Made by a program: the position numbers and the translations under genes. Positions 716 through 64,000 of a stretch of DNA of 64,000 nt are shown here, in pieces (the stretch's first letter is position 1; the number at the start of each line of letters is the position of its first letter). Origin of the DNA: Frigoribacterium sp. PhB160 (GTDB taxonomy: Bacteria > Actinomycetota > Actinomycetes > Actinomycetales > Microbacteriaceae); assembly GCF_003751785.1 (NCBI RefSeq), contig NZ_RKIE01000003.1:62001-126000 (forward strand), in the 5' to 3' direction. Below the pieces are notes generated by a model. It did not search any database. It was not told where the DNA came from and saw only the letters and a list, made by a program, of their open reading frames with translations.

Positions 716-2464
716 TCAGGAGGCGCGGTGCGTCCGCCGCGGATTCGGCACGGCGTCGAGGAGGCGCACCGTGTACGGGTCGGTCGGCCGCTGGAGCACC
801 TCCGCGGTGCGGCCGCGCTCGACCACGGCGCCGTCGTGCAGCACCATGACGTCGTCGGTGACGAGCCGCGCGCTGAGCAGGTCGTGCGTGATGTAGAGCA
901 TCGAGACGCCCCACTGCTCGCGGAGGTCCTCGAGCAGCGCCAGCACGCCGGCCCGCAGCGACACGTCGAGCATCGAGACGGGCTCGTCGGCGATGATCAC
1001 CTGCGGGTCGCTCGCGAGCGCCCGGGCGATGACGACCCGCTGCCGCTGACCGCCGGACAGCTGGTGCGGCAGCTTCGCCGCGAACTGCTCGACCGGCGTC
1101 AGACCGACCGTCTCGAGCAGTTCGAGGACGCGGCGCCGCGCCTCCTGCCCTCGGAGCCCGGTGTAGTTCACGACCGGCCGCGTCAGCGTGTACTCGACGG
1201 TGTGCAGCGGGTTGAGGGCCGAGTACGGGTCCTGGAAGACCATCTGCACGTCGCTCCGCAGGTCGCGCAGGCCGCGGCCGCGCACGCGGCTCACGTCGAC
1301 GTCGCCGAAGGTGATCGTGCCCTCGCTCGGCTTCTCGACGCCCGTCACCATGCGCGCGATCGTGCTCTTGCCCGAGCCCGACTGGCCGACGAGCGCGAGC
1401 GACTGCCCGGGCTCGAGGGTGAACGACACGTCGCGGACGGCCCGCACGGGGTCCTCGCCCCGACGCGGAGGCGCGTAGGTCTTGCTCACGCCGGTCACCG
1501 TGATCGCGCTCTGCGCCGCCTTCGTGCTGCGCGTGCCGACGCTCGGCGTGCTGGTGGTCGTGTCGACGCGGCGCTCGCCCCGGGCCCGGCGCACCGCGCG
1601 GTCCTCGAAGCCGGGCAGCGACACGACCTCGGCACGGGGGTCGGCGTAGTGCGAGAGCAGCATCTGCGTGTACTCGTGCTGCGGGTCGGCGAGCACCTCG
1701 GCCGAGCGGCCGTCCTCGACGATGCGGCCCTCGTGCATGACGAGCACCCGCTCCGTCGCCTCGAGCACGATGCCGAGGTCGTGGCTGATCAGCACCGCCG
1801 TGAATCCCTCGCTCTGCTGCAGCGCGATGATCGTGTCCATGACGGCGTGCTGCACGAGCACGTCGAGCGCGGTCGTCGGCTCGTCGAAGACCATCAGCTG
1901 CGGCTCGAGCGACAGGGCGAGCGCGATCGAGACGCGCTGCCGCATGCCGCCGCTGAGCTCCCCGGGGAACCGAGCGAGCACCGCCGGGTCGAGCTCGACC
2001 TTCTGCACGAGCTCGGCGGCACGGGAGTCCCAGTGCTCGCGCGGCACGTGGCCGTGCGCTCGGAAGACGTCGACGAAGTGCTTGCGGATGGTGCGCACCG
2101 GGTTGAGCGCGTTCATGCCCGACTGCAGCACCATGGCGAAGCCGCCCTGGCGCTGCTGCCGCAGGGCCTCGGCGTCGAGATCGCGGATGTCGGAGCCGTC
2201 GAAGACGATGCTGCCGCCGTTCGTCCGCGCCGGCGGCCTCTGCAGCCGCGTCAGCGCGTAGCCGAGCGTCGACTTGCCGGAGCCCGACTCGCCGACCAGG
2301 CCGACGAACTCGCCGCGGCGCAGCGAGAACGAGACGTGGTCGACGGCCTGCACCGGGGTCGAGGCGGCCGACTCGTAGACGACGCTGAGGTCGCGCACGT
2401 CGAGGATCGGGTCGTCGCGACCCGGGGAGGCGCGGTGCTGGTCGGTGAGGTCCGTGGCGGTCAT
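716..2464 (-). CDS. Opp/Dpp-type ABC transporter, fused double ATP-binding protein
   Basis: Energises the two permeases upstream. One 582-residue chain holds two complete nucleotide-binding domains, like GsiA or YejF. Domain 1 has Walker A GESGSGKST near 58-66, signature LSGGMRQR near 170-177 and Walker B FDEP near 193. Domain 2 has GQSGSGKST near 360-368, LSGGQRQR near 469-476 and ADEP near 492. The start ATG at 2464 overlaps the stop of the second permease by ATGA. The last codons run through one copy of the dispersed GGAGGCGCGG word (719-728). Neighbouring GH1 suggests oligosaccharide rather than peptide import; this substrate is inferred. Confidence 0.95.
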   Translation of the reverse strand: MTATDLTDQHRASPGRDDPILDVRDLSVVYESAASTPVQAVDHVSFSLRRGEFVGLVGESGSGKSTLGYALTRLQRPPARTNGGSIVFDGSDIRDLDAEALRQQRQGGFAMVLQSGMNALNPVRTIRKHFVDVFRAHGHVPREHWDSRAAELVQKVELDPAVLARFPGELSGGMRQRVSIALALSLEPQLMVFDEPTTALDVLVQHAVMDTIIALQQSEGFTAVLISHDLGIVLEATERVLVMHEGRIVEDGRSAEVLADPQHEYTQMLLSHYADPRAEVVSLPGFEDRAVRRARGERRVDTTTSTPSVGTRSTKAAQSAITVTGVSKTYAPPRRGEDPVRAVRDVSFTLEPGQSLALVGQSGSGKSTIARMVTGVEKPSEGTITFGDVDVSRVRGRGLRDLRSDVQMVFQDPYSALNPLHTVEYTLTRPVVNYTGLRGQEARRRVLELLETVGLTPVEQFAAKLPHQLSGGQRQRVVIARALASDPQVIIADEPVSMLDVSLRAGVLALLEDLREQWGVSMLYITHDLLSARLVTDDVMVLHDGAVVERGRTAEVLQRPTDPYTVRLLDAVPNPRRTHRAS

Positions 2465-3420
2465 CGACGCGCCTCCTTCGTCTTCTTCGCGGTGCCCTCG
2501 CGCAGGCGCGGGTTGCTGACGGCGTCGACGCCGAAGTTGATCAGGGTGAGGCTCATGGCGAGCAGGGCGATGCAGAGACCGGGGGCGAACAGGAGGATCC
2601 ACTGCCCGGTGAGCAGGGCGTTCGAGTTCTGCGCCCAGTAGAGGATCGTGCCCCAGCTGACGATCGACGAGTCGCCGAGACCCAGGAACTCGAGGCCGGC
2701 CTCGGCGAGGATCGCGCTCGTCGCGGCGCCGAAGAACGAGCCGACGATGAGCGACGTCATGTTCGGCAGGATCTCGCGGAACACGATGCGGACGGCGCCC
2801 TCGCCGGAGAAGCGGGCTGCCTCGACGAAGTCGCGCGATCGGAGCGACTGGGTCTGGCTCCGGAGCACGCGGGCGCCCCACGCCCAGCCGGTGACGACGA
2901 TGACCGCGATGATCACCGCGATGCCGCCGTTCTGCAGGTACGCCGCGATGACGATCATGAGCGGCAGGCCCGGGATGACGAGGAACAGGTTGACGACGAA
3001 GCCGACCACCTCGGCGGCCGGGCCGCGCAGGTAGCCCCAGCTGAGGCCGATCACGACGGCGACGAGCGTCGCGGCGATGCCGGCCACGAAGCCGACGAAG
3101 ACGCTGATGCGGGCGCCCCAGATGAGCTGGCTCAGGACGTCCTCGCCGGCGGCGGTCGTGCCCATCCAGTGGGCCCAGGAGGCGTCCTGGTTGCGCTCGA
3201 ACCCGTTCTCGCTGCCGCCGTACGGCGCGAGCAGCGGGGCGAGGACGGCCGTCAGGACGAAGACGCCGAGGATGACGATGCCGATCCTGGCCTTGGGGTT
3301 CGACCACACGACGCCGGCGGTGCGCAGCACGGTCTTCCAGGTGCTGGGCGCGGCCTGCTCGGCGGCGGGGCCGGCAGGGTCGCCGCCCTCGGGGAGGCGG
3401 ACGGACACGGTGGAGGTCAT
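2461..3420 (-). CDS. ABC transporter permease, DppC/OppC family
   Basis: Inner-membrane permease of 319 residues. A short Ala/Pro-rich N-terminus precedes a first membrane span (GIVILGVFVLTAVLAPLLAP), a periplasmic loop and a five-helix permease core. The ATPase-coupling EAA loop reads EAARFSGEGAVRIVFREILP, near 210. The start at 3420 overlaps the stop of the DppB-like gene (ATGA), and its own stop overlaps the ATPase start, so the genes are translationally coupled. Length and topology are normal for the family. Confidence 0.94.
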   Translation of the reverse strand: MTSTVSVRLPEGGDPAGPAAEQAAPSTWKTVLRTAGVVWSNPKARIGIVILGVFVLTAVLAPLLAPYGGSENGFERNQDASWAHWMGTTAAGEDVLSQLIWGARISVFVGFVAGIAATLVAVVIGLSWGYLRGPAAEVVGFVVNLFLVIPGLPLMIVIAAYLQNGGIAVIIAVIVVTGWAWGARVLRSQTQSLRSRDFVEAARFSGEGAVRIVFREILPNMTSLIVGSFFGAATSAILAEAGLEFLGLGDSSIVSWGTILYWAQNSNALLTGQWILLFAPGLCIALLAMSLTLINFGVDAVSNPRLREGTAKKTKEARR

Positions 3421-6164: not shown

Positions 6165-6219
6165 CCGGAGGCGCGGCACGGGCAGGCAGGACGGGGTCCG
6201 GAGGCGCGGCACGGGCAGG
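6165..6219 (+). repeat. 22-base direct repeat built on the GGAGGCGCGG word
   Basis: Bases 6165-6186 and 6198-6219 are identical over 22 bases, starting CCGGAGGCGCGG and continuing CACGGGCAGG, 33 bases apart. An inverted core copy lies at 6297-6306. It is not inside a credible gene. It may be a local duplication of the dispersed word. Confidence 0.85.
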
Positions 6220-6378
6220 TCGTTCGAGGTCGAGAGGGCGCGCCGCGGGTCGGAGCGCGACTGCGCGAGGATCGGGACGTGCGCTGCCCGGGTGCACCGC
6301 GCCTCCTCGTGTCGTCCCACGGCCCTGCGCCGAGCGACGGCGGCCGGCGCGTCGGCCGCCGACCCGTCAGGGAGCACC

Positions 6379-13318: not shown

Positions 13319-13486
13319 GGGGCAGCCTCCGACGAACGGGAGCCCCTGCGACCGAACCGACCCCGCGAGGAGGCGCCCGGTGCGCCTCGCGGCCACCGCG
13401 CCTCCCCGAGGCGGTCGCCCCGCCGCGCGCGACCGCCGCGGTTACGCGACGTGACGGCAGCCCCGGCGGCCGGCCCCGCGCCTCCG

Positions 13487-13498: not shown

Positions 13499-15577
13499 AT
13501 GGCCCCGCGCGACACCACCCCGACGACCGGCGACACCATCTCGGCCCTGCTCGACGAGCGGCGGACGTTCCCCGCGCCTCCGGCCCTCGCGGCCCACGCC
13601 AACGTGGCGGGCGCCGAGCACGAGCGCGCCGCCGCCGACCCCGTCGCCTTCTGGGAGGAGCAGGCCCGCCGCCTCGACTGGGAGACGCCGTGGACCACCG
13701 CCCACACCTGGTCGCCGGTGCGCGAGCTGGCCGACGGCAGCCTGACCGTGCCCGAGGCGACCTGGTTCGCGGGCGGCCGACTGAACGTCGCGGTCAACTG
13801 CGTCGACCGGCACGTCGCGGCCGGGAAGGGCGACAAGGTCGCCCTGCACGTCGAGGGCGAGCCCGGCGACCGTCGCGACGTCACGTACGCGCAGCTGCAG
13901 CGCGAGGTCGTCAAGGCCGCGAACGGCCTGCGCAGCCTCGGCGTCGGGAAGGGCGACCGCGTGGTCGTCTACCTGCCGGTCATCGCCGAGACGATCGTCG
14001 TGACGCTGGCGATCGCGCGCATCGGCGCGATCCACTCCCTCGTCTTCGGCGGCTTCTCGGGCGAGGCCCTGAGGTTCCGCGTCGAGGACACGGGCGCGAA
14101 GCTGCTCGTGACGACCGACGGCCAGTTCCGCCGCGGCGCGGCCGTGCCGGTCAAGGCGAACGCCGACCACGCGGTGAGCGGCGAGAACCAGGTCGAGCAC
14201 GTGCTCGTCGTGCGGCGGACCGGCGACCGGACGCCCGACGTGCCCTGGACCGAGGGCCGCGACCTCTGGTGGCACGACGTCGTCGACCCGCAGCCCGACG
14301 TCGACGAGCCCGAGGCCTTCGACGCCGAGACACCCCTCTTCATCATGTACACGAGCGGCACGACCGGTAAGCCGAAGGGCCTCGTCCACACGAGCGGCGG
14401 CTACCTCACCGCCGCGAGCTGGACCCACTGGGCCGTCTTCGACGCGAAGCCCGACGACGTGCACTGGTGCACGGCCGACCTGGCCTGGGTGACCGCGCAC
14501 ACCTACGAGATCTACGGCCCGCTGTCGAACGGCCTCACGCAGGTGATCTACGAGGGCACGCCCGACACCCCGCACCCGGCCCGCCACCTCGAGATCATCG
14601 AGCGCTACGGCGTCACCACGTACTACACGGCGCCGACGCTGGTGCGGACGCTGGCGTCGTGGTTCCCCGACGGGCTGCCGACCGACCACGACCTCAGCTC
14701 GCTGCGCCTGCTCGGCACGGTCGGCGAGGCGATCAACCCGGAGGCCTGGGTCTGGTTCCGCGAGCAGCTCGGCCGGGGCGAGCTGCCGATCGTCGACACC
14801 TGGTGGCAGTCCGAGACGGGGGCGGCCGTCATGGCGCCCCTGCCGGGCGTCGACACCCTGAAGCCCGGGTCGTCGCTGCGGGCGCTGCCCGGCGTCTCGA
14901 CCGCCGTCGTCGACGAGGCCGGCGAGCGCGTGCCGAACGGCTCGGGCGGCTATCTCGTCGTGCAGCAGACCCCGCCGTCGCTCGCCCGCACGGTCTGGGG
15001 CGACCCCGAGCGCTACCGCGACAGCTACTGGGCGAAGTACTGGCGGCAGGGCTGGTTCTTCTCGGGCGACGGGGCGAAGTACGACGACGACGGCGACATC
15101 TGGGTGCTCGGCCGCGTCGACGACGTCATCAACGTCTCCGGGCACCGGCTCTCGACGATCGAGGTCGAGTCGTCGCTCGTCTCCCACCCGCTCGTCGCCG
15201 AGGCGGCCGTGGTCGGCGTGGCCGACGACCGCACCGGGCAGGCGATCGCCGCCTTCGTGGTGCCTGCGTCGAGACCGGCCGGAGGCGCGGTGCGCGACGC
15301 CGGGTCCGCCGACGAACCGCCGGTGTGGGCCCCGCTCGCGGCGGAGCTCTCCGCGACGCTGCGGGCGCACGTCGCCGACCAGATCGGCCCGATCGCCAAG
15401 CCGGCGACGGTCGTCGTCGTGCCCGACCTGCCGAAGACCCGCTCGGGGAAGATCATGCGACGCCTGCTCGGCGACATCTGCGACGGCCGGGTGCTCGGCG
15501 ACACGACGTCGCTGCAGGACTCGACGGTGCCCGACCGGATCGCGGCCGTCCTCGCGGAGGTGCGACGCACCTCCTGA
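13499..15577 (+). CDS. acsA: Acetyl-CoA synthetase (AMP-forming)
   Basis: Activates acetate to acetyl-CoA through acetyl-AMP. 692 residues. P-loop YTSGTTGKPKG is near 283, WWQSETG near 438 and VSGHRLSTIEVES near 548. The C-terminal PKTRSGKIMRR near 645 carries the Lys that is acetylated in this family. The N-terminal FWEEQARRLDWETPW is typical of Acs rather than of acetoacetyl- or propionyl-CoA ligases, though propionate use cannot be excluded. Leaderless start (TACGCT at 13487-13492). The linker before the C-terminal subdomain contains the dispersed word GGAGGCGCGG (15281-15290) read as Gly-Gly-Ala-Val, and another copy lies at 13572-13581 near the start. Confidence 0.95.
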   Translation: MAPRDTTPTTGDTISALLDERRTFPAPPALAAHANVAGAEHERAAADPVAFWEEQARRLDWETPWTTAHTWSPVRELADGSLTVPEATWFAGGRLNVAVNCVDRHVAAGKGDKVALHVEGEPGDRRDVTYAQLQREVVKAANGLRSLGVGKGDRVVVYLPVIAETIVVTLAIARIGAIHSLVFGGFSGEALRFRVEDTGAKLLVTTDGQFRRGAAVPVKANADHAVSGENQVEHVLVVRRTGDRTPDVPWTEGRDLWWHDVVDPQPDVDEPEAFDAETPLFIMYTSGTTGKPKGLVHTSGGYLTAASWTHWAVFDAKPDDVHWCTADLAWVTAHTYEIYGPLSNGLTQVIYEGTPDTPHPARHLEIIERYGVTTYYTAPTLVRTLASWFPDGLPTDHDLSSLRLLGTVGEAINPEAWVWFREQLGRGELPIVDTWWQSETGAAVMAPLPGVDTLKPGSSLRALPGVSTAVVDEAGERVPNGSGGYLVVQQTPPSLARTVWGDPERYRDSYWAKYWRQGWFFSGDGAKYDDDGDIWVLGRVDDVINVSGHRLSTIEVESSLVSHPLVAEAAVVGVADDRTGQAIAAFVVPASRPAGGAVRDAGSADEPPVWAPLAAELSATLRAHVADQIGPIAKPATVVVVPDLPKTRSGKIMRRLLGDICDGRVLGDTTSLQDSTVPDRIAAVLAEVRRTS

Positions 15578-15794
15578 CGGGGCTCGTCGACTCACCGCGC
15601 CGCGCTCCGATCACGGCACCGCGACGAGACCCGCTGCGGCGGTCGGGACGCGGTGCGACATCCCGGCGTCAGCCGGGAGGACCACCCGACGCCATCCCTC
15701 CGGAGGCGCGGGTCGGCCCCCAGCGGCGGACGCGCCCCGCCCCCGGCGCTCCGTAGCGTCGGAGGCGACTCGCCCGAGCCGCCGAAGGAGCACC

Positions 15795-17692: not shown

Positions 17693-17723
17693 CAGTCCCC
17701 CGGCCGGAGGCGCGGTGCAGCGC

Positions 17724-21919: not shown

Positions 21920-22843
21920 TCAGCCGCGCAGGGACACCCACCAGATGAGCAGCATCGTCGTCAGGAACCCCGACACGAAGTTGAGGGTGAGGAAGCGCCT
22001 CCAGCCCTTGTTGACGCCCTCGGCGTCGGCGTCGGCGACGTTCCACCAGGGCGCGCAGCTGATGGCGTAGCCGACGGGGATGAGCGCCGCCAGCGGCCCT
22101 GGCCAGTCGGTGAAGGTCATGAGGACGCCCGCGAGCAGGTACGCCACGACCGAGAGCCGCACGGTCGACCGGGCGCCGATGACGGTGGCGGTCGAGGCGA
22201 TGCCGCCCTCGCGGTCGGCCAGCACGTCCTGCACGGCGCCGAACGCGTGGCTCGCCATGCCCCAGAGGAAGAACGCGCCGAGCAACGACCAGAGCGCCGG
22301 GGTGAAGTCGGCCCCCGCGAGCACGAGGCCGAAGACCGCGGGGCTCACGAAGTGGGTGCTCGACGTGACCGAGTCGACGAACGGCCGCTCCTTGAAGCGC
22401 AGCCGCGGCGCCGAGTAGGCGACGACGGCGAACATGCTCACCGCGAGCACGAGCGCGCTGAGCGGCCCGCCCACGGCCACGAGGAAGACGAGGAAGGGCA
22501 CGGTCGTCACGACCGACGCGACGAGCGTCGGGCGATGCATGCCGCGGTCGAGGAGGGCGCCCTCGACCCCGCCCTTCCGCGGGTTGCGGAGGTCGCTCTC
22601 GTAGTCGAAGACGTCGTTGATGCCGTACATCGCGAGGTTGTACGGCACGAGGAAGAAGACGAAGCCGACGATCGCGACGAGCCACGGCACGGTCGAGAAG
22701 TCGAACGAGCCGGCGGGCGCGGCCGCGCCGTCGCGCGGCGTCGAGGCCGCCGTCAGCACGTACGCCGCCGCGAAGGGGAACGCCGTGTTGATCCAGCTGA
22801 GGGGCCGGGACGACCAGAACAGGGCTCTCAGGGTCGCGGTCAC
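21920..22843 (-). CDS. crtEb: Lycopene elongase / UbiA-type prenyltransferase
   Basis: Adds dimethylallyl units to lycopene ends, giving C45/C50 carotenoids. 307 residues with eight to nine membrane helices. The Asp-rich site is NDVFDYESDLRNPRKG near 78-93, and the second conserved loop is VQDVLADREGGIASTAT near 205. GTG start at 22843 overlaps the crtYf stop. The bases just before the start are the dispersed word GGAGGCGCGG, which here also supplies the ribosome site. Last gene of the crtE-B-I-Ye-Yf-Eb operon, the same order as the decaprenoxanthin cluster of Corynebacterium. Confidence 0.93.
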   Translation of the reverse strand: MTATLRALFWSSRPLSWINTAFPFAAAYVLTAASTPRDGAAAPAGSFDFSTVPWLVAIVGFVFFLVPYNLAMYGINDVFDYESDLRNPRKGGVEGALLDRGMHRPTLVASVVTTVPFLVFLVAVGGPLSALVLAVSMFAVVAYSAPRLRFKERPFVDSVTSSTHFVSPAVFGLVLAGADFTPALWSLLGAFFLWGMASHAFGAVQDVLADREGGIASTATVIGARSTVRLSVVAYLLAGVLMTFTDWPGPLAALIPVGYAISCAPWWNVADADAEGVNKGWRRFLTLNFVSGFLTTMLLIWWVSLRG

Positions 22844-23286
22844 CGCGCCTCCTCGTCCCGGGTCGCTGCGGGCGCGGCGGCGGCCGACGCCGAGGCCTCG
22901 ACGCGGGCGCGGTCGCGCGGGTGGACGAGGGTGGGCTCGCGGGGCGCGCGCCGCCCGCCGAGCAGGCTCCAGACGCTCGGCAGCAGCACGAGGGCGGCGA
23001 CGGCGTAGGCGAAGTCCTCGAGGGGCGCGACGCCGATCTTCACGCCGCTGATGCGGGCCTCGTCGTAGCCGACGAGGCCGACGCCGATCATGACGTTGTC
23101 GAAGACGGCCGTCATCACGAGCAGCACGACGGTCGCCAGCGCCGCCGCGCGCACGCGCTCGACGAGCGGACGACCCGGTGAGGAGGCGCGTCCCGCCCGC
23201 CGACGCGACCAGGCCAGCAGCAGGGCCGCCCCGGCCGCCGCGGCCACGAGGACGAGGAAGACGGCGTTGATCGCCCAGTAGGTCAC
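22840..23286 (-). CDS. crtYf: Carotenoid cyclase subunit, CrtYf type
   Basis: Small membrane subunit of the heterodimeric C50 carotenoid cyclase, 148 residues, GTG start at 23286 overlapping crtYe. Three to four helices; VFDNVMIGVGLVGYDEARIS and APLEDFAYAV are the family motifs. The tail is Ala/Arg-rich. Whether the product has epsilon, beta or gamma rings cannot be told from sequence alone. Confidence 0.9.
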   Translation of the reverse strand: MTYWAINAVFLVLVAAAAGAALLLAWSRRRAGRASSPGRPLVERVRAAALATVVLLVMTAVFDNVMIGVGLVGYDEARISGVKIGVAPLEDFAYAVAALVLLPSVWSLLGGRRAPREPTLVHPRDRARVEASASAAAAPAATRDEEAR

Positions 23287-29189: not shown

Positions 29190-29464
29190 TGAGCTCCCGC
29201 GATGGTCGACTTCCCAGCCGCGTGTCGTGAGCAGTCGCCCTCGGATGCAGCGACAGTAGGGGCGGGGCCTGGGAGACCGCCGGGCAGATCGGCCCTCGTC
29301 CATGCCCCCTCCGGCATGCGTCGACCCGGAGGCGCGGGTCGGCTCCCCAGCGTCGGCCGCCGCCCGTCGCGGGGGCCTCCGTCCCCTCGACGGCGAGCGA
29401 CCCCGGGCCCCGGCCCCCGCCGTCGGGTCGTAAACTGGGTCGGTCCCCCGTCGAGAAGAGTGAA

Positions 29465-32782: not shown

Positions 32783-32888
32783 GCGCCCATCATGCCGACC
32801 CGTCCCGCCTCGCGGTAGTCGCGGGCGGTGCCTGCACCCGCCCGGCCCACGGGGAGGCGCGGGACGGCGAGGCGGGGAGGCCACGCCC

Positions 32889-35159: not shown

Positions 35160-36184
35160 CCGACACGACGCAGACCGTGACCGGGGCGGAGGAGCCGACC
35201 CGCGCCTCCCTCGCCTCGATGCCCCTCGGCAAGGCGATCACCGCCGGCCTCCGCGCTTCGATGTCCGCCGACCCGCGCGTGCTGCTCATGGGCGAGGACA
35301 TCGGCACGCTCGGCGGGGTCTTCCGCGTCACCGAGGGGCTGCAGGCCGAGTTCGGCGACGACCGCGTCATCGACACCCCGCTCGCGGAGTCGGGCATCGT
35401 CGGCACGGCGATCGGGCTCGCGATGGCCGGGTTCCGCCCGGTCTGCGAGATCCAGTTCGACGGCTTCATCTACCCGGGCTTCGACCAGATCACCTCGCAG
35501 CTCGCGAAGCTCACCAACCGCCACGAGGGCACGCTGCAGATGCCCGTCGTGATCCGCGTGCCCTACGGCGGGCACATCGGAGCCGTCGAGCACCACCAGG
35601 AGAGCCCCGAGGCGTACTTCGCGCACACCGCCGGCCTCCGCGTCGTCAGCCCGAGCACGCCGCACGACGCCTACTGGATGATCCAGGAGGCGATCGCGTC
35701 GAACGACCCGGTCATGTTCTTCGAGCCCAAGAGCCGCTACTGGCCCAAGGGCGAGGTCGACCTGTCCGACCCGCAGGCGCCGCTGCACGCCAGCCGCGTC
35801 GTGCGCACCGGCACCGAGGTGACCCTGCTCGGCCACGGCGCCATGGTCAGCGTGCTGCTGCAGGCCGCCGAGATCGCCGCCGCCGAGGGCATCTCGGTCG
35901 AGGTCGTCGACCTGCGCTCGCTGTCGCCCGTCGACTACGGGCCGATCCTCGAGTCGGTGCGGAAGACCGGCCGCCTCGTCGTCGCGCAGGAGGCCCCCGG
36001 GTTCGTCAGCGTCGGCTCCGAGATCGCCGCGACCGTCGCCGAGAAGGCGTTCTACTCGCTGCAGGCGCCGGTGCTGCGCGTCAGCGGGTTCGACACGCCC
36101 TTCCCGCCCGCCAAGCTCGAGACCCTGTACCTGCCCGACGCCGACCGCGTGCTCGAGGCCGTCGACCGCGCTCTCGCGTACTAG
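35156..36184 (+). CDS. 2-oxoacid dehydrogenase E1 beta
   Basis: 342 residues, transketolase-like. [18 protein letters not shown] near 43 and [21 protein letters not shown] near 71 are typical, and the C-terminal domain ([15 protein letters not shown]) matches the family. ATG at 35156 overlaps the E1 alpha stop (ATGA), consistent with equal synthesis for the alpha2beta2 complex. Confidence 0.95.
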
Positions 36185-38542: not shown

Positions 38543-39004
38543 CTAGAGGCTGAAGAGCCGCTCCCCCGCGGCGACCGTCGACCCGACGACCGACTGGTCG
38601 ACGCTGTCGGGCGCGCTGTCGAGCACGACGACCGGGCAGGCGAGCGAGTACCCGGCCTCCGAGACGACGACCGGGTCGACGCTGACGACGAGGTCGCCCG
38701 CGGCGACCGTCGCGCCCTCGGCGACGGCGAGCGTGAAGCCCGCGCCGCCGAGCTTCACCGTGTCGATGCCGACGTGCACGAGCACGCCCTCACCCGACGC
38801 GGCCACGACGACGAACGCGTGCGGGTGCAGCTTGACGACGACGCCGTCGACGGGCGAGACGACCTCGACGAGCGACGACCCGACCGGAGGCGCGGAGGGC
38901 TCGAGCGCGACGCCCGCCCCCACGAGCTGGCCGGCGAACACCGCGTCCGGCACCTCGGCGAGCGCGACGACCCGCCCGGCGACGGGCGCGAGGACGTCCG
39001 TCAC
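38543..39004 (-). CDS. PTS EIIA, glucose/N-acetylglucosamine family
   Basis: 153 residues, the usual size of a free-standing Crr-type EIIA. The phosphorylated His is in VLVHVGIDTVKL near 78, with the second active-site His in LHPHAFVVV near 63. GTG start at 39004 overlaps the EIIB stop. It contains one GGAGGCGCGG copy (38886-38895) in frame. Passes phosphate from HPr to EIIB. Confidence 0.92.
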   Translation of the reverse strand: MTDVLAPVAGRVVALAEVPDAVFAGQLVGAGVALEPSAPPVGSSLVEVVSPVDGVVVKLHPHAFVVVAASGEGVLVHVGIDTVKLGGAGFTLAVAEGATVAAGDLVVSVDPVVVSEAGYSLACPVVVLDSAPDSVDQSVVGSTVAAGERLFSL

Positions 39005-39390: not shown

Positions 39391-40653
<1,263 letters not shown>

Positions 40654-40658
40654 GCGCC

Positions 40659-40724
40659 GGAGGCGCGGTGCGGGTCGGAGGGGGAGGGTCGCGACCCTGC
40701 CCCTTCCGCGTGCACCGCGCCTCC
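40659..40724. terminator. Terminator-like hairpin made from an inverted pair of GGAGGCGCGG words
   Basis: GGAGGCGCGGTGC (40659-40671) pairs exactly with GCACCGCGCCTCC (40712-40724). The interior has a 14-base palindrome AGGGTCGCGACCCT (40685-40698). It begins 5 bases after the nagE stop and is followed by CCCGTTTT. It ends just before the Zur box of the next operon. Confidence 0.8.
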
Positions 40725-40730
40725 CCGTTT

Positions 40731-40758
40731 TGACAATCATTATCAGTAGCAATAGCGT
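40731..40758 (+). promoter_or_regulatory. Zur box and -10 of the znuACB operon
   Basis: TGACAATCATTATCA (40731-40745) is an A/T-rich imperfect palindrome matching the actinobacterial Zur consensus of the form TGAnAATnATTnTCA. TAGCGT (40753-40758) follows, and the ATG at 40765 comes six bases later, so the messenger is leaderless and the box covers the -35 to -13 zone. Zinc-bound Zur would block the promoter. Confidence 0.82.
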
Positions 40759-45432: not shown

Positions 45433-47415
45433 ATGTCCAGGATCACCCGCGCCTCCGGACCGGCACTGCTCGTGCTGGTGGCGTTCGTCGCACTCCTCGC
45501 GGCGCTGCAGTTCGGCGGCGCCGCCGACGCCCCGCTCGTGGTCGACCCCGGCGCGGTCGTGCGCTTCGGCCTGCCGATGGCCAAGATGATGAACAACATC
45601 GGGGCCGCCGTCGCGATCGGCACCCTGTTCCTCACCTGCTTCGCGCTGTCGCGCGACAAGCCCGAGTTCGACCGCGCCATGGACATCGCCGCCGGCGCCG
45701 CGGGCTTCTGGGCCGTCGCGTCGGCCGTGACGACCTTCTTCACGTTCCTCAGCGTCGCGAACGTCGCCGTCACCTTCGACGACCAGTTCGGGCGGACGCT
45801 CGCGTTTTTCCTCACCGACACCGAGCTCGGCAACGCCTGGCTCGCCACGACGCTCGTCGCGGCCGCGGTGACCGTGCTCTGCTTCGCCGTCCGCAACATC
45901 TGGGCCCTCGTCGGCGTCACGGTGCTGGCGGGCGGCGGGCTCATCCCGATCGCGATGCAGGGCCACGCGGCCGGCGCGAGCGGCCACGACGCCGCCGTCA
46001 CCGACCTCGCGCTGCACCTGCTCGGCGCCGCCGTCTGGCTCGGCGGCCTCGTCGCCCTCGTGCTGCTGCGCGGCACCCTCGAGCGCGGCCGCATCGGCGT
46101 CGTGCTGGCGCGGTACTCGACCGTCGCGATCGTCTGCTTCGTCGTCGTCGCCGCGTCGGGCGTCGGCAGCGCCGCGATCCGGCTAGGCGACTGGTCGGCG
46201 CTGACCACCGGCTACGGCGTGCTCGTGCTGGTCAAGACCCTCTCGCTGGTGGCGCTCGGCATCTTCGGCGTCGTGCAGCGCCGCTGGCTCGTCGGCCGCA
46301 TGTCGACGCACCCGACCGCGACCGCCCGCTTCTTCTGGTGGTTCGTGACGGCCGAGCTGGCCTTCATGGGGCTCGCGTCGGGCGTCGCGGCGGCCCTGGC
46401 CCGCACGGCCACCCCGGTCGAGGAGGTCGTCGCCACCGACCTCGCCTCGCCGACGCCCGCCGAGATCCTCACGGAGGAGCCGCTGCCGGCCGAGCTCACC
46501 CCGATGAGCTACCTCACGCAGTGGAACGTCGACCTGCTCTGGGCCCTCGTCTGCGCGTTCGGCATCTTCTTCTACGTCGCGGGCGTGGTGCGCCTGCACC
46601 GTCGCGGCGACGCGTGGTCGCTCGGCCGCACGGTGTCGTGGGTGTCGGGCATGGTCGTGCTGTTCTACGTGACGTGCGGCGCCCCGAACGTGTACCAGGA
46701 CTACCTGTTCAGCACGCACATGCTGGCGCACATGGTGCTCGGCATGGTGATCCCCGTGCTGCTCGTGCCGGGCGCCCCGGTGACCCTGGCGCTGCGGGCG
46801 ATCCGCAAGCGCACCGACGGCACCCGGGGGCCGCGCGAGTGGATCATGATCCTCGTGCACTCGACGTACGCGCACGTCATCAGCAACCCGATCGTGGCGG
46901 CGGTGCTCTTCGCCGGGTCGCTCTTCGTCTTCTACTACACGTCGCTCTTCAGCTGGGCGACGACGACGCACCTCGGCCACTACTGGATGATCGTGCACTT
47001 CCTGATCGTCGGGTACCTCTTCGTGCAGTCGATGATCGGCATCGACCCGGTCAAGGGCCGCCTGCCGTTCCCGATGCGGCTGCTCGTGCTGCTGGCGACG
47101 ATGGCGTTCCACGCGTTCTTCGGGCTCAGCATCATGACGAGCACGTCGCTGTTCCTCGCCGACTGGTACGGCGCCATGGGCCGCACCTGGGGCGCGACGC
47201 CCATGGCCGACCAGTACGCGGCCGGCGGCATCGCGTGGAGCGTCGGAGAGATCCCGACCGTGGCCCTCGCCATCACCGTCGCCATCATGTGGAGCCGCAG
47301 CGACAGCCGCGAGGCCAAGCGCAAGGACCGTCAGGCCGACCGCGACGGCGACGCCGAGCTCGACGCCTACAACGAGCAGCTCTCGGCGCTGGCGCGGAGC
47401 GACCGGCGCTCCTGA
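45433..47415 (+). CDS. CopD-CtaG fusion: copper transport / cytochrome c oxidase assembly membrane protein
   Basis: 660 residues, about 16 membrane spans. The N-terminal half (to about 320) is CopD-like, with HAAGASGHDAAVTDLALHLLGAAVWLGGL near 178-206. The C-terminal half (about 360-640) is caa3_CtaG-like, with FSTHMLAHMVLGMVIP near 436 and further conserved His and Met residues. It probably brings copper to cytochrome oxidase. Start codon leaderless. The fused form is usual in actinobacteria. An in-frame GGAGGCGCGG copy lies at 45447-45456 in the first codons. Confidence 0.92.
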   Translation: MSRITRASGPALLVLVAFVALLAALQFGGAADAPLVVDPGAVVRFGLPMAKMMNNIGAAVAIGTLFLTCFALSRDKPEFDRAMDIAAGAAGFWAVASAVTTFFTFLSVANVAVTFDDQFGRTLAFFLTDTELGNAWLATTLVAAAVTVLCFAVRNIWALVGVTVLAGGGLIPIAMQGHAAGASGHDAAVTDLALHLLGAAVWLGGLVALVLLRGTLERGRIGVVLARYSTVAIVCFVVVAASGVGSAAIRLGDWSALTTGYGVLVLVKTLSLVALGIFGVVQRRWLVGRMSTHPTATARFFWWFVTAELAFMGLASGVAAALARTATPVEEVVATDLASPTPAEILTEEPLPAELTPMSYLTQWNVDLLWALVCAFGIFFYVAGVVRLHRRGDAWSLGRTVSWVSGMVVLFYVTCGAPNVYQDYLFSTHMLAHMVLGMVIPVLLVPGAPVTLALRAIRKRTDGTRGPREWIMILVHSTYAHVISNPIVAAVLFAGSLFVFYYTSLFSWATTTHLGHYWMIVHFLIVGYLFVQSMIGIDPVKGRLPFPMRLLVLLATMAFHAFFGLSIMTSTSLFLADWYGAMGRTWGATPMADQYAAGGIAWSVGEIPTVALAITVAIMWSRSDSREAKRKDRQADRDGDAELDAYNEQLSALARSDRRS

Positions 47416-47535
47416 GGCCGCGACGCGGGCGCGCCCCGTGCGAGGGGCGCTCGCTCTGGGGGTCGTGCCGGAGGCGCGGTCCGGCTTGGATCGGACCCGG
47501 ACGTCACGAGACGCCCCCGACCGAGAGGACCACCC

Positions 47536-48578: not shown

Positions 48579-49475
48579 ATGCCCGCACAGGACGCCGAGC
48601 TCGGCCGGATGCTCTCGACCTGGCGCGCACGCCTCTCCCCCGCCGACGCGGCCCTGCCCGTGGGCGGTCGCCGGCGGGCCGTCGGGCTCCGCCGTGAGGA
48701 GCTCGCCGCCCTCGCCGGCCTCTCGGTCGACTACGTCGTCCGGCTCGAGCAGGGTCGCGCCCGGCACCCCTCCGACCAGGTCGCCACGGCGCTCGCCCGG
48801 GCCCTGCAGCTCGACGACGCCGAGCGCGACCACCTGTTCCGCAGCGCCGGGCTCCTGCCCCCGACGACGGCCGTCGTCTCGCGACACATCCCGCCCGGGG
48901 TGCAGCGCCTGGTGGCCCGGCTGCGCGAGACGCCGATCGCGGTGTTCAGCGCCTCCTGGGACCTGCTGACCTGGAGCCCGCTCTGGGGCAGCCTGCTCGG
49001 CGATCCCGACGGCTGGCCCGCCGACGAACGGAACATCGTCGTGCGGGCGTTCCGCGACGCCCGTCGCGAGGCCGGCGGACCGACCGACGGAGGCGCGGGC
49101 ACCGCCATCCGCACCCGTCACCTCGACGGGGAGGGCGGCTCCCGGTTCCGCGAGGCGCTCGTCGCCGACCTGCGCCGCACGCTGGTGGACCACCCGGCCG
49201 ACCCGCGCCTCCGAGCGCTCGTCGACGGGCTCGTCGCCGACGAGCCCGAGTTCGCGCAGCTGTGGGCCCGGGGCGCCGTCGGCGTGCACGAGTCGGCGCG
49301 CAAGGTCATGGACCATCCGCTGGTCGGGGAGCTCGAGCTCGACTGCGACGTGTTCACCGTGCCGGGCAGCGAGCTCAAGATCGTCGCCTACACGGCGGCC
49401 GAGGGGTCGCCCGCGGCGGCCGGGCTCGACTTCCTCCGGGTGTCGGCGGTCGGCGCGGAGGCGCGGGGCCGCTAG
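48579..49475 (+). CDS. XRE-type regulator with MmyB ligand-binding domain
   Basis: 298 residues. Helix-turn-helix near 25-75 (GLRREELAALAGLSVDYVVRLEQGR), then the PAS-like MmyB domain (VFSASWDLLTWSPLWGSLLGD near 122). The family senses small hydrophobic ligands such as fatty acids. Its last codons (AEARGR) run through the GGAGGCGCGG word at 49457-49466, and another copy is at 49089-49098. Its stop overlaps the stop of the convergent LLM gene by four bases. Confidence 0.92.
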   Translation: MPAQDAELGRMLSTWRARLSPADAALPVGGRRRAVGLRREELAALAGLSVDYVVRLEQGRARHPSDQVATALARALQLDDAERDHLFRSAGLLPPTTAVVSRHIPPGVQRLVARLRETPIAVFSASWDLLTWSPLWGSLLGDPDGWPADERNIVVRAFRDARREAGGPTDGGAGTAIRTRHLDGEGGSRFREALVADLRRTLVDHPADPRLRALVDGLVADEPEFAQLWARGAVGVHESARKVMDHPLVGELELDCDVFTVPGSELKIVAYTAAEGSPAAAGLDFLRVSAVGAEARGR

Positions 49476-50521: not shown

Positions 50522-50661
50522 GTGGTGCGCTCCATTTCCATGCGTTTGCATCATGCTACGGGAGCCAACCGGGATCGGCCGCCCGGCATTCCTGCCGCGT
50601 GACCGCCGCGTCCCGACGTCGTGGAGCACAGCCCGCCGGAGGCGCGGGCCGGCCGCCCTGC

Positions 50662-53140: not shown

Positions 53141-54094
53141 TCAGCGCGGCTCGTCGGCGTCGAGCCAGTTCGCGCGGGCGGGCAGGAGCGCCTCGAGCTC
53201 GTCCCAGAACGGCTCCGGCAGCTCGACGGTGGCCGCCGCGACGGTGGCCTCGACGCGCTCGAGCTTGCTGATGCCGACGATCGTCGAGGCGATGCGCGGG
53301 TCGCGCGTCGAGAAGCGGACCGCGGCGGTCGCGAGGTCGGTGCCCCACGCGGCGCAGACCTCGCGCATGCGGACGATCGCCTCGAGCGTCGCCGGACGGG
53401 CGGGACGGTACCCGTAGGAGTCGACGCGGCCGGTCGTGTCGGCCAGGATGCCGCCGCCGAGCACCGCGGCGTTGAGGACGGCCACCCCCAGCTCGCCGGC
53501 GCGCGCGATGAGGTCGCCCGCGCTGCGGTCGACGAGCGTCCACCGGTTGTGCACGAGCAGCACCTCGAAGACCCCGAGCTCGAGGTACCGCGCCATCTGC
53601 CGGACGTCGCCCCCCGCGAGGCCCAGGTGGCCGATCTCGCCGCGGTCGCGGGCGTCCACGAGGGCCTCCACCGCGCCTCCGGCGCTCGTCATCCGGTCGG
53701 GGTCGTGGAACTCGGGGTCATGGAGCTGCACGAGCGGCAGCGGGTCGACGCCGAGCCGACGACGGCTCTCGTCGAGCGAGCGCCGCACGCGGTCGCCGCT
53801 GTAGTCGGCCCCGCTCGGGTCGACCTTCGTCATGACCAGCACGTCGTCGGGCAGGCCGCCGTGCTCGGCGATCGCGCGGCCGATGCGTTCCTCGCTGCGG
53901 CCGTCCGAGTAGCCGTTCGCCGTGTCGATCGTGCGGATGTCGCTGTCGAACAGCGCCCGCACCAGGTCGACGGCGTCGCGCTCGGCCACGCTGTAGCCGA
54001 AGTTCTCCGGCATGCTGCCGAGGGGCGCCCCGCCCGCGGTGACGGGGCTGACGCGCAGCCCCGTCCGACCCAGGGGGACGAGGTCCCAGCGCAC
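53141..54094 (-). CDS. Aldo/keto reductase
   Basis: 317 residues. PLGRTGLRVSPVTAGGAPLG start, then IDTANGYSDGRSEERIG near 54 (catalytic Asp and Tyr), Lys in VLVMTKVDPSG near 85 and the substrate-side His in LVQLHDPEF near 119. The closest type is the aldose/fucose 1-dehydrogenase-like AKR group. GTG at 54094 lies one base from the VOC stop. It could oxidise a free sugar to a lactone in this locus. An in-frame GGAGGCGCGG copy is at 53671-53680. Confidence 0.9.
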   Translation of the reverse strand: MRWDLVPLGRTGLRVSPVTAGGAPLGSMPENFGYSVAERDAVDLVRALFDSDIRTIDTANGYSDGRSEERIGRAIAEHGGLPDDVLVMTKVDPSGADYSGDRVRRSLDESRRRLGVDPLPLVQLHDPEFHDPDRMTSAGGAVEALVDARDRGEIGHLGLAGGDVRQMARYLELGVFEVLLVHNRWTLVDRSAGDLIARAGELGVAVLNAAVLGGGILADTTGRVDSYGYRPARPATLEAIVRMREVCAAWGTDLATAAVRFSTRDPRIASTIVGISKLERVEATVAAATVELPEPFWDELEALLPARANWLDADEPR

Positions 54095-54977: not shown

Positions 54978-56216
54978 TCAGGCGGGGAGGACGGCCTCTG
55001 CGCGGCCTGCGCGGGCGTGCGGGGTGAGGACGTGCTGGAGGGCCAGCGACGCGGCACCGACCGCGGCCGCGTCGAGGCCCGGGTCGACGAGCGTCACCTC
55101 GACCTCGTGGAGGCTCCGGGTGCGGGCCAGTCGGGAGCTCTGCTCCTCGATCTCCCGCACGTAGATGTCGCCCGCGTCGGCGAACCCGGGGCCGGCCAGG
55201 TAGACGCGGCCCAGGTCGAGCAGGTTCACGACCGAGAGCATCGCGGCGGCGACGTAGCGCGCCGACCGCGTGACGACGGCGGCGCAGCGCTCGTCGCCCC
55301 GGGCCGCCGCGCGGGCGATCGCGTCGAAGTCGTGCCGGAGGTGGCCGTCGTCGCCGGACAGCTCGAGCTCGAGCCGCAGCGCCGGGTCGGCCATCGCCTC
55401 GGCGACCATGGCCCGGGGGCCGGCGACCATCTCGAGGCAGCCGCGCGAACCGCACCAGCACTGCCGGCCCTCGAACTCGACGACCATGTGGCCGATCTCG
55501 CCGACGTTCGACGAGGCGCCCCGGGCGACCGCGCCTCCGGTGACGAGGCCCAGGCCGAAGCCGTTCGACATGTAGAGCGTCGCGAAGTCGTCCCCCGCCG
55601 ACATGCGCCCGGCCCAGAACTGGCCGAGGGCGGCGCAGGCGGCGTCGTTGTCGCGGACCACGGGCAGGCCCATGCGCGACCCGAGCGCCTCCTGCACCGC
55701 GAAGGAGTCCCAGTCGTCCGTCGTGAGGGACATGCGCTCTGCACCGGCCCCCAGGTCGAGGCCGGCCCCCGCCACGCCCACGCCCACGACGTCGGCCGTC
55801 GGGATCGCCAGCTCGGCGAGCAGCGCCTCGAGCTCGTCGGCGATGCGAGCGACGACGGCGCTCGGGGCCGTCTGCCCGATGCCGGTCGAGACGTGGTGGC
55901 CGATCACCCGGCCGCCGAGGTCCGCGACGACGTAGGTCAACCGGGCGTCGTCGAGGGACACGCCCACGGCGTACCGGGCGTCGGGGTTGAGCTCGAGGAG
56001 GCTGCGCCGCTTCCCGCCCGTGGCGTCCCCGTAGCCGGTCTCGACCACGAGGCGGTCCTCGATGAGCGACTTCACGATGCGGGTGATCGAGGTCGGGGTG
56101 AGACCCGACATCTCGGCGAGCTCGATGCGGCTCACGGTGCCGCTCGACCGGACGAGGTCGAGGACGGCGCTGCGGGTGTTCTGCGACGAGGGCCCGAGCC
56201 GACGGACGGTGGTCAT
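54978..56216 (-). CDS. ROK family transcriptional regulator
   Basis: 412 residues, ATG at 56216 after GGGAGGAC. N-terminal winged helix (SRIELAEMSGLTPTSITRIVKSLIED near 35). The ROK sugar-kinase-like core has DNDAACAALGQFW near 195 and the zinc/structural motif GEIGHMVVEFEGRQCWCGSRGCLE near 240. Regulators of the NagC/XylR type repress sugar operons and release DNA on sugar binding. It lies inside the operon it probably controls. In-frame GGAGGCGCGG copy at 55529-55538. Confidence 0.94.
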   Translation of the reverse strand: MTTVRRLGPSSQNTRSAVLDLVRSSGTVSRIELAEMSGLTPTSITRIVKSLIEDRLVVETGYGDATGGKRRSLLELNPDARYAVGVSLDDARLTYVVADLGGRVIGHHVSTGIGQTAPSAVVARIADELEALLAELAIPTADVVGVGVAGAGLDLGAGAERMSLTTDDWDSFAVQEALGSRMGLPVVRDNDAACAALGQFWAGRMSAGDDFATLYMSNGFGLGLVTGGAVARGASSNVGEIGHMVVEFEGRQCWCGSRGCLEMVAGPRAMVAEAMADPALRLELELSGDDGHLRHDFDAIARAAARGDERCAAVVTRSARYVAAAMLSVVNLLDLGRVYLAGPGFADAGDIYVREIEEQSSRLARTRSLHEVEVTLVDPGLDAAAVGAASLALQHVLTPHARAGRAEAVLPA

Positions 56217-60158: not shown

Positions 60159-60169
60159 GCGCGCGTCGC

Positions 60170-60938: not shown

Positions 60939-61083
60939 GGTCGTCTCCTGACGGGTGGTGGTGACGCGGACCCCTGTCCGCTGCTGGTACGACCCTCGGG
61001 AGCGCACCTGAAGCCCCGCTTAAGTCGCCGGGCCGTCCAGCGCTTCCATAGGGTCGGCACGGCGGCGGCCCATCCCGTGGCCG

Positions 61084-61089
61084 TACGGT
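61084..61089 (+). promoter_or_regulatory. -10 box for the leaderless response-regulator gene
   Basis: TACGGT with seven bases to the GTG at 61097; no ribosome site. Confidence 0.6.
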
Positions 61090-61096
61090 CACGCCG

Positions 61097-63387: not shown

Positions 63388-63395
63388 CGGCCCGC

Positions 63396-64000
63396 CTAGC
63401 CGAACGTGATCTGGTCGTCCGGCGAGATGGTCATGTCGTAGCTGACGGTGAAGGGGACGTCCTCGTCGATCGTGTACGGCACCCCGTCGAAGAGGGACTG
63501 CGCCTCGACGACGAGGTGGGCCGTGCCGGGCACGTCGCGCACGAGCCACTGCCCCGGCGTCGACGACGGCTCGACCACGAGCTGCGGGTAGTCGACCATC
63601 GACCAGGTCGGCGTGCCCGTGACGCGGTCGTCGACCTGCCGTCCGAACGGGCAGCCGGCCGGCAGCAGCACGGTCTGCGGCACGCAGGAGTCGTCGAGCT
63701 GGTCGTCGAGCTGCTGCTGCAGCTCCGCCGAGAAGGAGGCGCGGGCCACGGTCGCGACGGTCGCCGACGAGCTCGCCCCCACGCTCAGCACCGACGCCTC
63801 GACGGCGGGCGCCTCGAGGTAGGTGCTGCTGTGCGACAGCTCGAAGCGCGACGGCGCGAGCACCTCGAACCGCGTGGCGACGTCGCCCCCGGCGGTCGTG
63901 ACCGAGCGGCCGTCGACCGTGAAGCGGGAGTCGTGCTCGGGCGTCACCGCGAGGATCGCCGTGGGCGCCTGCGCGAACCGCCAGGCCCGGAAGACCCCGA
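63396..64000 (-). CDS. Hypothetical protein, C-terminal part (5' end beyond window)
   Basis: The frame is open from the right edge to the stop at 63396, about 200 residues. It reads ...FRAWRFAQAPTAILAVTPEH, then a beta-rich sequence with SCVPQTVLLPAGCPFGRQVDD (two Cys about 11 apart) and a final SYDMTISPDDQITFG. An internal GTG at 63947 could be taken for a start, but coding character continues upstream. Probably the extracellular end of a larger membrane protein of a type common in Microbacteriaceae; no function known. It is convergent with the histidine kinase, eight bases apart. Confidence 0.7.
   Translation of the reverse strand, partial: GVFRAWRFAQAPTAILAVTPEHDSRFTVDGRSVTTAGGDVATRFEVLAPSRFELSHSSTYLEAPAVEASVLSVGASSSATVATVARASFSAELQQQLDDQLDDSCVPQTVLLPAGCPFGRQVDDRVTGTPTWSMVDYPQLVVEPSSTPGQWLVRDVPGTAHLVVEAQSLFDGVPYTIDEDVPFTVSYDMTISPDDQITFG

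What the first reader, a model, noticed from the sequence alone, without database searches (positions are those of the whole stretch)
719..63744. A dispersed 10-mer, GGAGGCGCGG, occurs 28 times in 64 kb, in and between genes
Exact copies start at 719, 6167, 6200, 15281, 15702, 17706, 21909, 29328, 31837, 32853, 38886, 40659, 47470, 49089, 49457, 50638, 51246 and 63735 (plus strand), and at 6297, 13396, 13476, 13572, 22843, 35200, 40715, 45447, 53671 and 55529 (minus). At about 72% G+C roughly two are expected on both strands together. Most extend to CCGGAGGCGCGG and many continue with T/G-N-C. There are also many one-base variants. Unlike REP elements it sits in coding as well as non-coding DNA, and copies occur singly, as direct pairs and as an inverted pair. 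This is how DNA-uptake sequences, Chi-like recombination sites or chromosome-organising words behave. I know of no such word described for this group. The strand split is 18:10.
Basis: partly seen in the sequence, partly recalled or inferred. Interest (0 to 1): 0.82.

Follow-up and report, generated by a model that had tools for sequence, protein, structure and literature searches.

The report
Genus-specific DNA word, likely self-DNA tag
A ten-letter DNA word is scattered about 1,400 times through a Frigoribacterium genome, at the ends of genes and inside genes where the proteins do not require it, and it may be a tag by which these bacteria recognise DNA of their own kind when taking it up.

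Summary
The host is a Frigoribacterium (Microbacteriaceae). All 15 congeners held carry 842-1,725 copies. Most other genera are at control level; genus g47 and one g70 genome share the word. In sampled genes it is 8-fold above synonymous-codon shuffles. Between genes it is 3.4-fold denser. It forms 64 head-to-head pairs; those folded make long hairpins. It shows no replication-strand polarity, is conserved more than control 10-mers, and is absent from one 20 kb low-GC stretch. Many sister genera carry another word, CGGATGCCGC, up to 2,441 copies, not enriched in 139 genomes of other families. This resembles neisserial DNA uptake sequences and their dialects. ComEC is nearly universal in the family and this genome has a type IV pilus operon. 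Uptake was not tested, no receptor was found, and the tie to pilus genes is weak. Best reading: a self-DNA uptake signal (0.55). I saw no prior report in ten paper searches.

The parts
719..728 (+). copy of GGAGGCGCGG in the last codons of a minus-strand CDS (716-2464)
6167..6176 (+). intergenic copy, first of a direct pair with 6200
6200..6209 (+). intergenic copy, second of the direct pair; faces the minus-strand copy at 6297
6297..6306 (-). intergenic copy, head-to-head with 6200 across 87 bp
13396..13405 (-). intergenic copy
13476..13485 (-). intergenic copy, tandem with 13396 and 13572
13572..13581 (-). copy inside CDS 13499-15577 near its 5' end
15281..15290 (+). copy in frame in CDS 13499-15577
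15702..15711 (+). intergenic copy between two co-directional genes
17706..17715 (+). intergenic copy between convergent genes, 8 bp from a stop codon
21909..21918 (+). intergenic copy directly after a stop codon; exact word in 5 of the 12 aligned genomes that reach this place
22843..22852 (-). copy overlapping a GTG start codon and the end of the preceding CDS; exact in 5 of 16 aligned genomes, one mismatch in 9
29328..29337 (+). intergenic copy in a divergent region; exact in this genome only
31837..31846 (+). copy inside purB (30508-31890, minus); exact in 8 of 16 aligned genomes, 3-4 mismatches in 7 of the other 8, no gaps
32853..32862 (+). intergenic copy; exact in 11 of 16 aligned genomes, gapped in 4
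35200..35209 (-). copy near the 5' end of CDS 35156-36184; exact in 13 of 16 aligned genomes, one mismatch in 3
38886..38895 (+). copy inside CDS 38543-39004; exact in this genome only, 8 others differ only in the last base
40659..40668 (+). 5' arm of an inverted pair, 5 bp after a stop codon
40715..40724 (-). 3' arm of the inverted pair; 40640-40740 folds to -66.7 kcal/mol as RNA, z -5.6
45447..45456 (-). intergenic copy
47470..47479 (+). intergenic copy
49089..49098 (+). copy in frame in CDS 48579-49475
49457..49466 (+). copy at the 3' end of CDS 48579-49475
50638..50647 (+). intergenic copy 14 bp from a stop codon
51246..51255 (+). copy near the 5' end of CDS 50662-51279 (minus)
53671..53680 (-). 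copy in frame in CDS 53141-54094
55529..55538 (-). copy in frame in CDS 54978-56216
63735..63744 (+). copy in CDS 63396-63998 (minus, runs off the window)

Best explanation
GGAGGCGCGG is the self-recognition word of a natural-transformation system. A DNA-binding component of the uptake apparatus (by analogy a minor pilin of the type IV pilus, or a ComEA-type receptor) prefers fragments that carry it. Such fragments come mostly from related cells, so alleles with the word are taken up and recombined more often. This drive builds up and maintains about 1,400 copies wherever local function permits: at gene ends, where two copies facing each other double as hairpin (terminator-like) stems, and inside genes through synonymous change. 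Related genera use other words, chiefly CGGATGCCGC, as dialects. Shown: abundance, genus-wide presence, excess beyond codon usage, intergenic and hairpin placement, conservation, lack of polarity, absence from one low-GC stretch, a sister word across much of the family, presence of com and pilus genes. Inferred: preferential uptake, the receptor, the drive, and that the sister words belong to the same system.
For: Abundance as described for DUS: 1,378 copies in 3.34 Mb, 674 + and 704 -, reversed control 148; 842-1,725 in 15 of 15 congeners. Excess in coding DNA not due to protein or codon choice: 111 against 13.9. 1.16 per kb between genes (69 copies in 59.3 kb) against 0.35 in genes (114 in 330.2 kb); 23 of 69 intergenic copies lie within 15 bp of a called stop codon, 2 within 15 bp of a start. 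64 head-to-head pairs 3-33 bp apart in this genome, 23-74 in each of the 16 genomes of the genus, reversed control 0; two of them fold to -47 and -46 kcal/mol. The Neisseriaceae paper describes such inverted pairs. Exact word retained in 38% (coding) and 35% (intergenic) of genome comparisons against 19% and 8% for 9-GC 10-mers and 27% and 14% for neighbouring 10-mers. Variant alleles in genes are mostly gap-free substitutions. No copy in the low-GC stretch L004, 8.3 expected. No polarity: 85 copies on the G-rich and 74 on the C-rich strand, p 0.43. Sister word CGGATGCCGC exceeds 1,000 copies in several genera, up to 2,441, is not enriched in Frigoribacterium nor, by the rule of at least 3 times control and 50 copies, in any of 139 genomes of other families, and exceeds synonymous shuffles. 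Sequence from three Microbacterium phages shows no excess of the sister word. ComEC in 195 of 199 family genomes; a type IV pilus operon with pilins, prepilin peptidase and PilM in this genome. Natural transformation is published for two Microbacteriaceae (PMC11577799, passages).
Against: No uptake or transformation data. No receptor: minor pilins diverge fast and are not more alike between genera that share the word. PilM is only weakly tied to the sister word: 33 of 52 genomes with PilM and 16 of 48 without are enriched (p 0.003); among genomes of at least 2.4 Mb and 90% completeness 29 of 46 and 14 of 29 (p 0.24); one genome per genus 26 of 40 and 11 of 24 (p 0.19); three PilM-lacking genomes have 609-1,073 copies. 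The sister words show little intergenic enrichment in most genera sampled (Microbacterium excepted) and few hairpin pairs, so they may be another phenomenon. The weaker candidate dialects do not stand clear of negative-control families. The two published transformants belong to small-genome lineages; genomes under 2 Mb have at most 29 copies of the sister word, except the incomplete G204 (158). Phage samples are small, and it is not known whether their own hosts carry the word.
Confidence: 0.55

Rival explanations
1. Chi-like recombination site: the word switches a helicase-nuclease (AdnAB, RecBCD or AddAB type) from degradation to recombination, so copies across the chromosome are selected.
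For: Chromosome-wide, in genes, G-rich. It does not need pili, which fits enriched genomes without PilM. Two sister words lean to the G-rich strand: g37 41 to 25, p 0.06, and g9 14 to 6, p 0.12.
Against: No strand polarity by local GC skew in Frigoribacterium (85 to 74) or g78 (45 to 43). Strong placement between genes and as inverted pairs is not expected of Chi (recalled). The word changes completely between genera of one family.
Confidence: 0.18
2. Binding site of a chromosome-organising or nucleoid protein (KOPS, matS, Noc or SlmA type, or a methylase) peculiar to the family.
For: Many dispersed copies on both strands, conserved within the genus.
Against: No polarity. Similar density in the normal-GC stretches sampled, 8-17 per 20 kb in 13 of 16. 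Preference for gene ends and hairpins is unexplained. The distribution along the whole chromosome was not mapped.
Confidence: 0.12
3. RNA-level signal: the word is the favoured stem of transcription terminators or a 3'-end protein site, and other copies are by-products.
For: 64 hairpin pairs in this genome, gaps of 16 or 17 bp in 8 of 11 pairs closer than 60 bp, 23 of 69 intergenic copies within 15 bp of a stop codon, convergent regions richest (23 copies in 11.6 kb).
Against: About 128 of 1,378 copies (9%) are in such pairs; 114 of 183 sampled copies lie in genes, 44 sense and 67 antisense in complete CDS.
Confidence: 0.08
4. Codon usage, ribosome-binding sites (GGAGG) or composition.
For: GGAGG is a Shine-Dalgarno core (recalled); the sampled genome is 73% G+C.
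Against: Shuffles that keep protein and codon use give 8-fold less; the reversed word gives 16 against 21.5; by my gene calls one of 32 window copies (22843) sits as a ribosome site would; other high-GC genera lack the word.
Confidence: 0.02
5. Debris of a mobile repeat (REP or MITE type).
For: Inverted pairs between genes; 40% of intergenic comparisons are gapped, though 49% of control 10-mers are too.
Against: Sequence conservation fades within about ten bases of the word; alternative alleles in genes mostly align without gaps, 10% gapped; fit in reading frames by synonymous choice.
Confidence: 0.03

Closest known systems
DNA uptake sequence (DUS) of Neisseriaceae, with its dialects (PMC3630211, passages seen)
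   Same: 10-12-mer, of the order of a thousand copies or more, in genes and between genes, inverted pairs associated with terminators, different words in related genera sharing a short core, type IV pilus and competence genes present.
   Different: Unrelated sequence; Actinomycetota; no ComP identified; sister words show little hairpin pairing; uptake not tested. One-mismatch words exceed expectation only at positions 9-10 here; in the paper allowing one mismatch raises counts by 21% and 45% in two genomes named in the passages.
Uptake signal sequence (USS) of Pasteurellaceae
   Same: Short over-represented word; receptor long unknown (PMC12616744, listing with start of abstract).
   Different: Unrelated word; the flanking AT-rich parts recalled for USS have no counterpart seen here.
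Chi sites (recalled)
   Same: Short G-rich dispersed word in genes.
   Different: No polarity here; intergenic and paired placement; changes between genera.
REP, BIME and similar intergenic palindromes (recalled)
   Same: Hairpins between genes.
   Different: Most copies are single, many in coding DNA, no long conserved element beyond the word.

Membership tests
DNA uptake sequence (DUS/USS) | Short word over-represented far beyond composition and codon usage on both strands | tested here: met
DNA uptake sequence (DUS/USS) | Inverted pairs acting as terminator-like hairpins | tested here: met
   for placement and folding in Frigoribacterium; termination itself not tested; sister words rarely pair
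DNA uptake sequence (DUS/USS) | Dialects in related genera with a shared core | tested here: inconclusive
   Strong sister words in g2, g8, g9, g50, g78 and CGGATGCCGC across the family; the shared GGA[T/G] is my alignment by eye; g49, g70 (G205) and g74 show none; g3, g5, g26, g30, g37 are weak
DNA uptake sequence (DUS/USS) | Depleted in foreign DNA | tested here: inconclusive
   0 copies in L004, 4 each in L003 and L015, all lower in GC; phage sequence at expectation for the sister word; small samples, L004 not proven foreign
DNA uptake sequence (DUS/USS) | Competence genes and type IV filament in the same organism | tested here: met
   association with PilM across the family weak
DNA uptake sequence (DUS/USS) | Word increases uptake or transformation | not testable with these tools
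   needs experiment
DNA uptake sequence (DUS/USS) | Sequence-specific receptor (ComP in Neisseria) | tested here: inconclusive
   pilin genes found, no covariation with the word
Chi site | Orientation bias along the replichore | tested here: not met
   by a local GC-skew proxy on sampled stretches only; a Chi with weak polarity is not excluded
Chi site | Recognised by the RecBCD/AddAB/AdnAB-type enzyme | not testable with these tools
   needs biochemistry
KOPS or matS type chromosome word | Polarity or confinement to a chromosome domain | tested here: inconclusive

The most novel reading that the evidence does not exclude
Microbacteriaceae evolved, independently of Neisseriaceae and Pasteurellaceae, a DNA 'language' for self-recognition in transformation, with at least two clear dialects (CGGATGCCGC in many genera; GGAGGCGCGG in Frigoribacterium, genus g47 and one g70 genome) and several probable ones. 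To my knowledge it would be the first in a Gram-positive phylum, where no outer membrane separates the pilus from the receptor.
Probability: 0.5. Interest if true: 0.92.

Novelty: new variant of a known kind. Interest (0 to 1): 0.8.

Why it matters
Sequence-specific uptake is described for two bacterial families in the review I saw (PMC5031613, passages). A third, in Actinomycetota and with dialects, would show that self-tagging of DNA evolves repeatedly, would give several independent word changes to test how receptor and word co-evolve, and could give a practical rule for transforming laboratory Frigoribacterium and relatives.

Tried and rejected
Codon, ribosome-site and composition explanations: contradicted by synonymous shuffles and gene positions. 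Mobile repeat: contradicted by gap-free alleles in genes and by flanks. A Markov-3 ranking alone proved too lenient: five negative-control genomes from other families also gave words with z 9-17, so I re-ranked with synonymous shuffles. There the top 10-mers score z 12.5 (this genome), 8.3 (congener G015; the word itself 7.9), 11.2 (g2), 10.9 (g8), 10.2 (g9), 9.1 (g50), 11.7 (g78). Of five negative-control genomes four stay at or below 6.7 and one, G026, reaches 9.7 with CGACGCCGTC. Weak candidates at k=10: g5 7.4, g26 6.7, g37 5.8, g3 5.6, g30 4.7. At k=8 g37 (10.1), g5 (9.0) and g30 (7.3) do not stand clear of the controls, which reach 9.4; g50 (16.8) does. None: g49, g74, and g70 (two genomes sampled; in G084 the word itself is not among its top 10-mers). 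g32 gives z 11.1 with GAGCAGCAGC, which I take for codon context, so a high z alone is not proof of a tag. The Curtobacterium loci are orthologous copies of one locus and were not used. ComEC does not discriminate. Receptor search by covariation found nothing. A plasmid search with a window protein gave nothing useful. Gene positions come from my own simple caller; it failed on g3 and was adjusted from then on. The PilM table was transcribed by hand. Scripts 12 and 14 failed and were corrected as 13 and 15.
Full report
Observation. GGAGGCGCGG occurs 32 times in the window, 20 on + and 12 on -. By my own gene of 32 lie between genes although about 93% of the window is called coding. The whole genome (3,338,185 bases, 4 contigs) has 674 + and 704 -; the reversed word has 148.

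Host and range. The best named relatives of the window's purB are two Frigoribacterium strains (89 and 88%), then other genera at 80% or less. 15 of 15 congeners hold 842-1,725 copies; 24 genomes of other genera in the family and order hold 5-120, at, near or below their controls. In 199 family genomes I see the word otherwise enriched in genus g47 (688, 673 and 220 copies against controls 107, 118 and 61; 3 of 3 sampled) and in one of three g70 genomes (399 against 142; the others 133 against 98 and 117 against 190) (judged by eye; G080, 17 against 5, is too few to tell).

Not codons. In 389.5 kb of the genome (window plus 17 stretches) 183 copies stand against 8.1 for a third-order Markov model. 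In 345 complete CDS there are 111 copies, 44 sense and 67 antisense; 100 synonymous shuffles within genes give 13.9, sd 3.1, at most 27. The reversed word gives 16 against 21.5. Of 94 intergenic sites with the 8-base core GGAGGCGC, positions 9 and 10 are G in 93 and 79%.

Anatomy. Copies are 3.4 times denser between genes: 69 in 59.3 kb against 114 in 330.2 kb. The noncoding figure includes an rRNA contig and the sparsely called L004, which makes the ratio low if anything. Of 69 intergenic copies 23 lie between convergent genes; 23 lie within 15 bp of a called stop codon and 2 within 15 bp of a called start. Head-to-head pairs 3-33 bp apart number 64 in this genome and 23-74 across the 16 genomes of the genus, reversed control 0. 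In the pool, pairs facing each other within 3-40 bp number 9, facing away 3, tandem 2, against 0.8 by chance per orientation. Eight of 11 pairs closer than 60 bp have a gap of 16 or 17 bp. Two fold at -47.2 and -45.9 kcal/mol, z -8.0 and -7.0; the window pair at 40659-40724 gives -66.7, z -5.6.

Evolution. I aligned 20 kb around purB from 15 congeners with the window, 81-86% identical where alignable. A word in one genome is exact in another in 38% of coding and 35% of intergenic comparisons; random 9-GC 10-mers give 19 and 8%, neighbouring 10-mers 27 and 14%. One-mismatch states are rarer than in controls between genes (2.9% against 6.2%) but hardly so in genes (20% against 24%). These comparisons are not independent, since copies are shared by descent. 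In genes the other allele usually aligns without gaps (10% gapped; for example 8 with and 8 without at 31837), so there the word arises or is lost by substitution, not insertion. Between genes 40% of comparisons are gapped, as are 49% of control 10-mers.

Foreign DNA and polarity. Stretch L004 (66.6% G+C) has 0 copies where 8.3 are expected; L003 and L015 (69%) have 4 each; the other 13 stretches of 20 kb have 8-17. L004 is sparsely called; I did not show that it is a genomic island. Using local GC skew, 85 copies lie on the G-rich and 74 on the C-rich strand, p 0.43. Of the sister words g78 gives 45 to 43, but g37 leans 41 to 25 (p 0.06) and g9 14 to 6 (p 0.12).

Sister words. Ranking words in other genera gave CGGATGCCGC and relatives. 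Whole-genome counts reach 2,441 (G170), 1,702 (G131), 1,358 (G092) and 1,179 (G016) with reversed controls of 20-71; four Frigoribacterium genomes have 30-42 against 35-53. In the 100-genome subset, 49 are enriched (at least 3 times control and 50 copies). By the same rule 0 of 139 genomes from other families of the order are; the nearest is G320, 65 against 26. These words too exceed synonymous shuffles, e.g. 23 against 2.4 in g2 and 50 against 5.0 for the 9-mer in g78; by an all-word ranking g2, g8, g9, g50 and g78 stand out, others are weak or absent. They share GGA followed by T or G with the window's word; this alignment is mine, by eye. Against a single system: most sister words are little enriched between genes (g8, g50 and Cryobacterium rather the reverse; Microbacterium 2.4-fold or more) and rarely form hairpin pairs.

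Machinery. ComEC (PF03772) is found in 195 of 199 family genomes. PilM (PF11104) passes its cut-off in 52 of 100, including both Frigoribacterium genomes searched. The operon in this genome has two T2SSE ATPases (one cut by the stretch), T2SSF, three proteins with pilin-like N-termini by eye (two with the N_methyl domain), a long protein at the PilX position, a prepilin peptidase, PilM and genes at the PilN and PilO positions. The names PilX, PilN and PilO rest on gene order and recall: Pfam gave no match for the first two and the third was not scanned. Genomes with PilM have more of the sister word (33 of 52 against 16 of 48 enriched, Fisher p 0.003), but not clearly after removing small or incomplete genomes (29 of 46 against 14 of 29, p 0.24), somewhat again after also removing four genera with another word (29 of 40 against 14 of 29, p 0.048), and not with one genome per genus (26 of 40 against 11 of 24, p 0.19). 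Within genus g2 the PilM-positive genome has 1,179 copies and a negative one 287, one pair only. Minor pilins are 37-51% identical between two Frigoribacterium genomes whose EF-G is 95% identical, and are not more alike in g47, which shares the word.

Phages. In 78.8 kb from three Microbacterium phages CGGATGCCG occurs once against 2.6 expected; in 64 kb of Microbacterium chromosome 34 times against 4.2. The phages' own hosts were not examined.

Literature. The Neisseriaceae paper (PMC3630211, passages) describes over-represented 10-mers, eight dialects, a three-base core and inverted pairs at terminators. A review (PMC5031613, passages) names Pasteurellaceae and Neisseriaceae for uptake words. 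PMC6370729 (passages) describes Flp-pilus competence in the actinobacterium Micrococcus luteus. PMC11577799 (passages) reports natural transformation in two small-genome Microbacteriaceae. In the listings of ten searches (long lists shown in part) I saw no report of this word or of uptake words in Actinomycetota; the library lacks most subscription journals and preprints.

Verdict. The word is real and unusual. The uptake reading accounts for hairpins, gene ends, synonymous fit, strand equality, genus boundaries and sister words together; Chi accounts for fewer of these. Without an experiment I put uptake at 0.55.

Noticed in passing
L143-L147 (G015): In congener G015 another repeat, GGCAGGAGTTG, occurs 10 times in 100 kb, 9 of them between genes; possibly a second intergenic element.
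   Followed up: no
L160-L163 (G023) and L197-L200 (G051): Repeats such as CGTCTCGAAACC / CGGGTTGAGGAG and GCCTGTCGAA rank high; they resemble intergenic palindromes common in actinobacteria (recalled).
   Followed up: no
L217-L220 (G026, another family): CGACGCCGTC, 24 in CDS against 3.5 in synonymous shuffles; the only 10-mer above z 7 in the five negative-control genomes, perhaps a separate case.
   Followed up: no
L189-L192 (G040, 1.4 Mb genome): A different word is over-represented in a small-genome Microbacteriaceae: its 8-mer core ATCGGTGT occurs 33 times in CDS against 8.1 in shuffles.
   Followed up: partly
L156-L159 (G022): Two words at once, GGATGCCCGG (18 against 1.3) and GGATGTCGCG (14 against 1.3) in CDS, like a genome with two dialects.
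   Followed up: no
L227:4136-8655: The pilin and minor pilin genes differ much more between two Frigoribacterium genomes (37-67% identity) than rpsL (100%), EF-G (95%) or the PilB and PilC parts (90 and 87%).
   Followed up: partly
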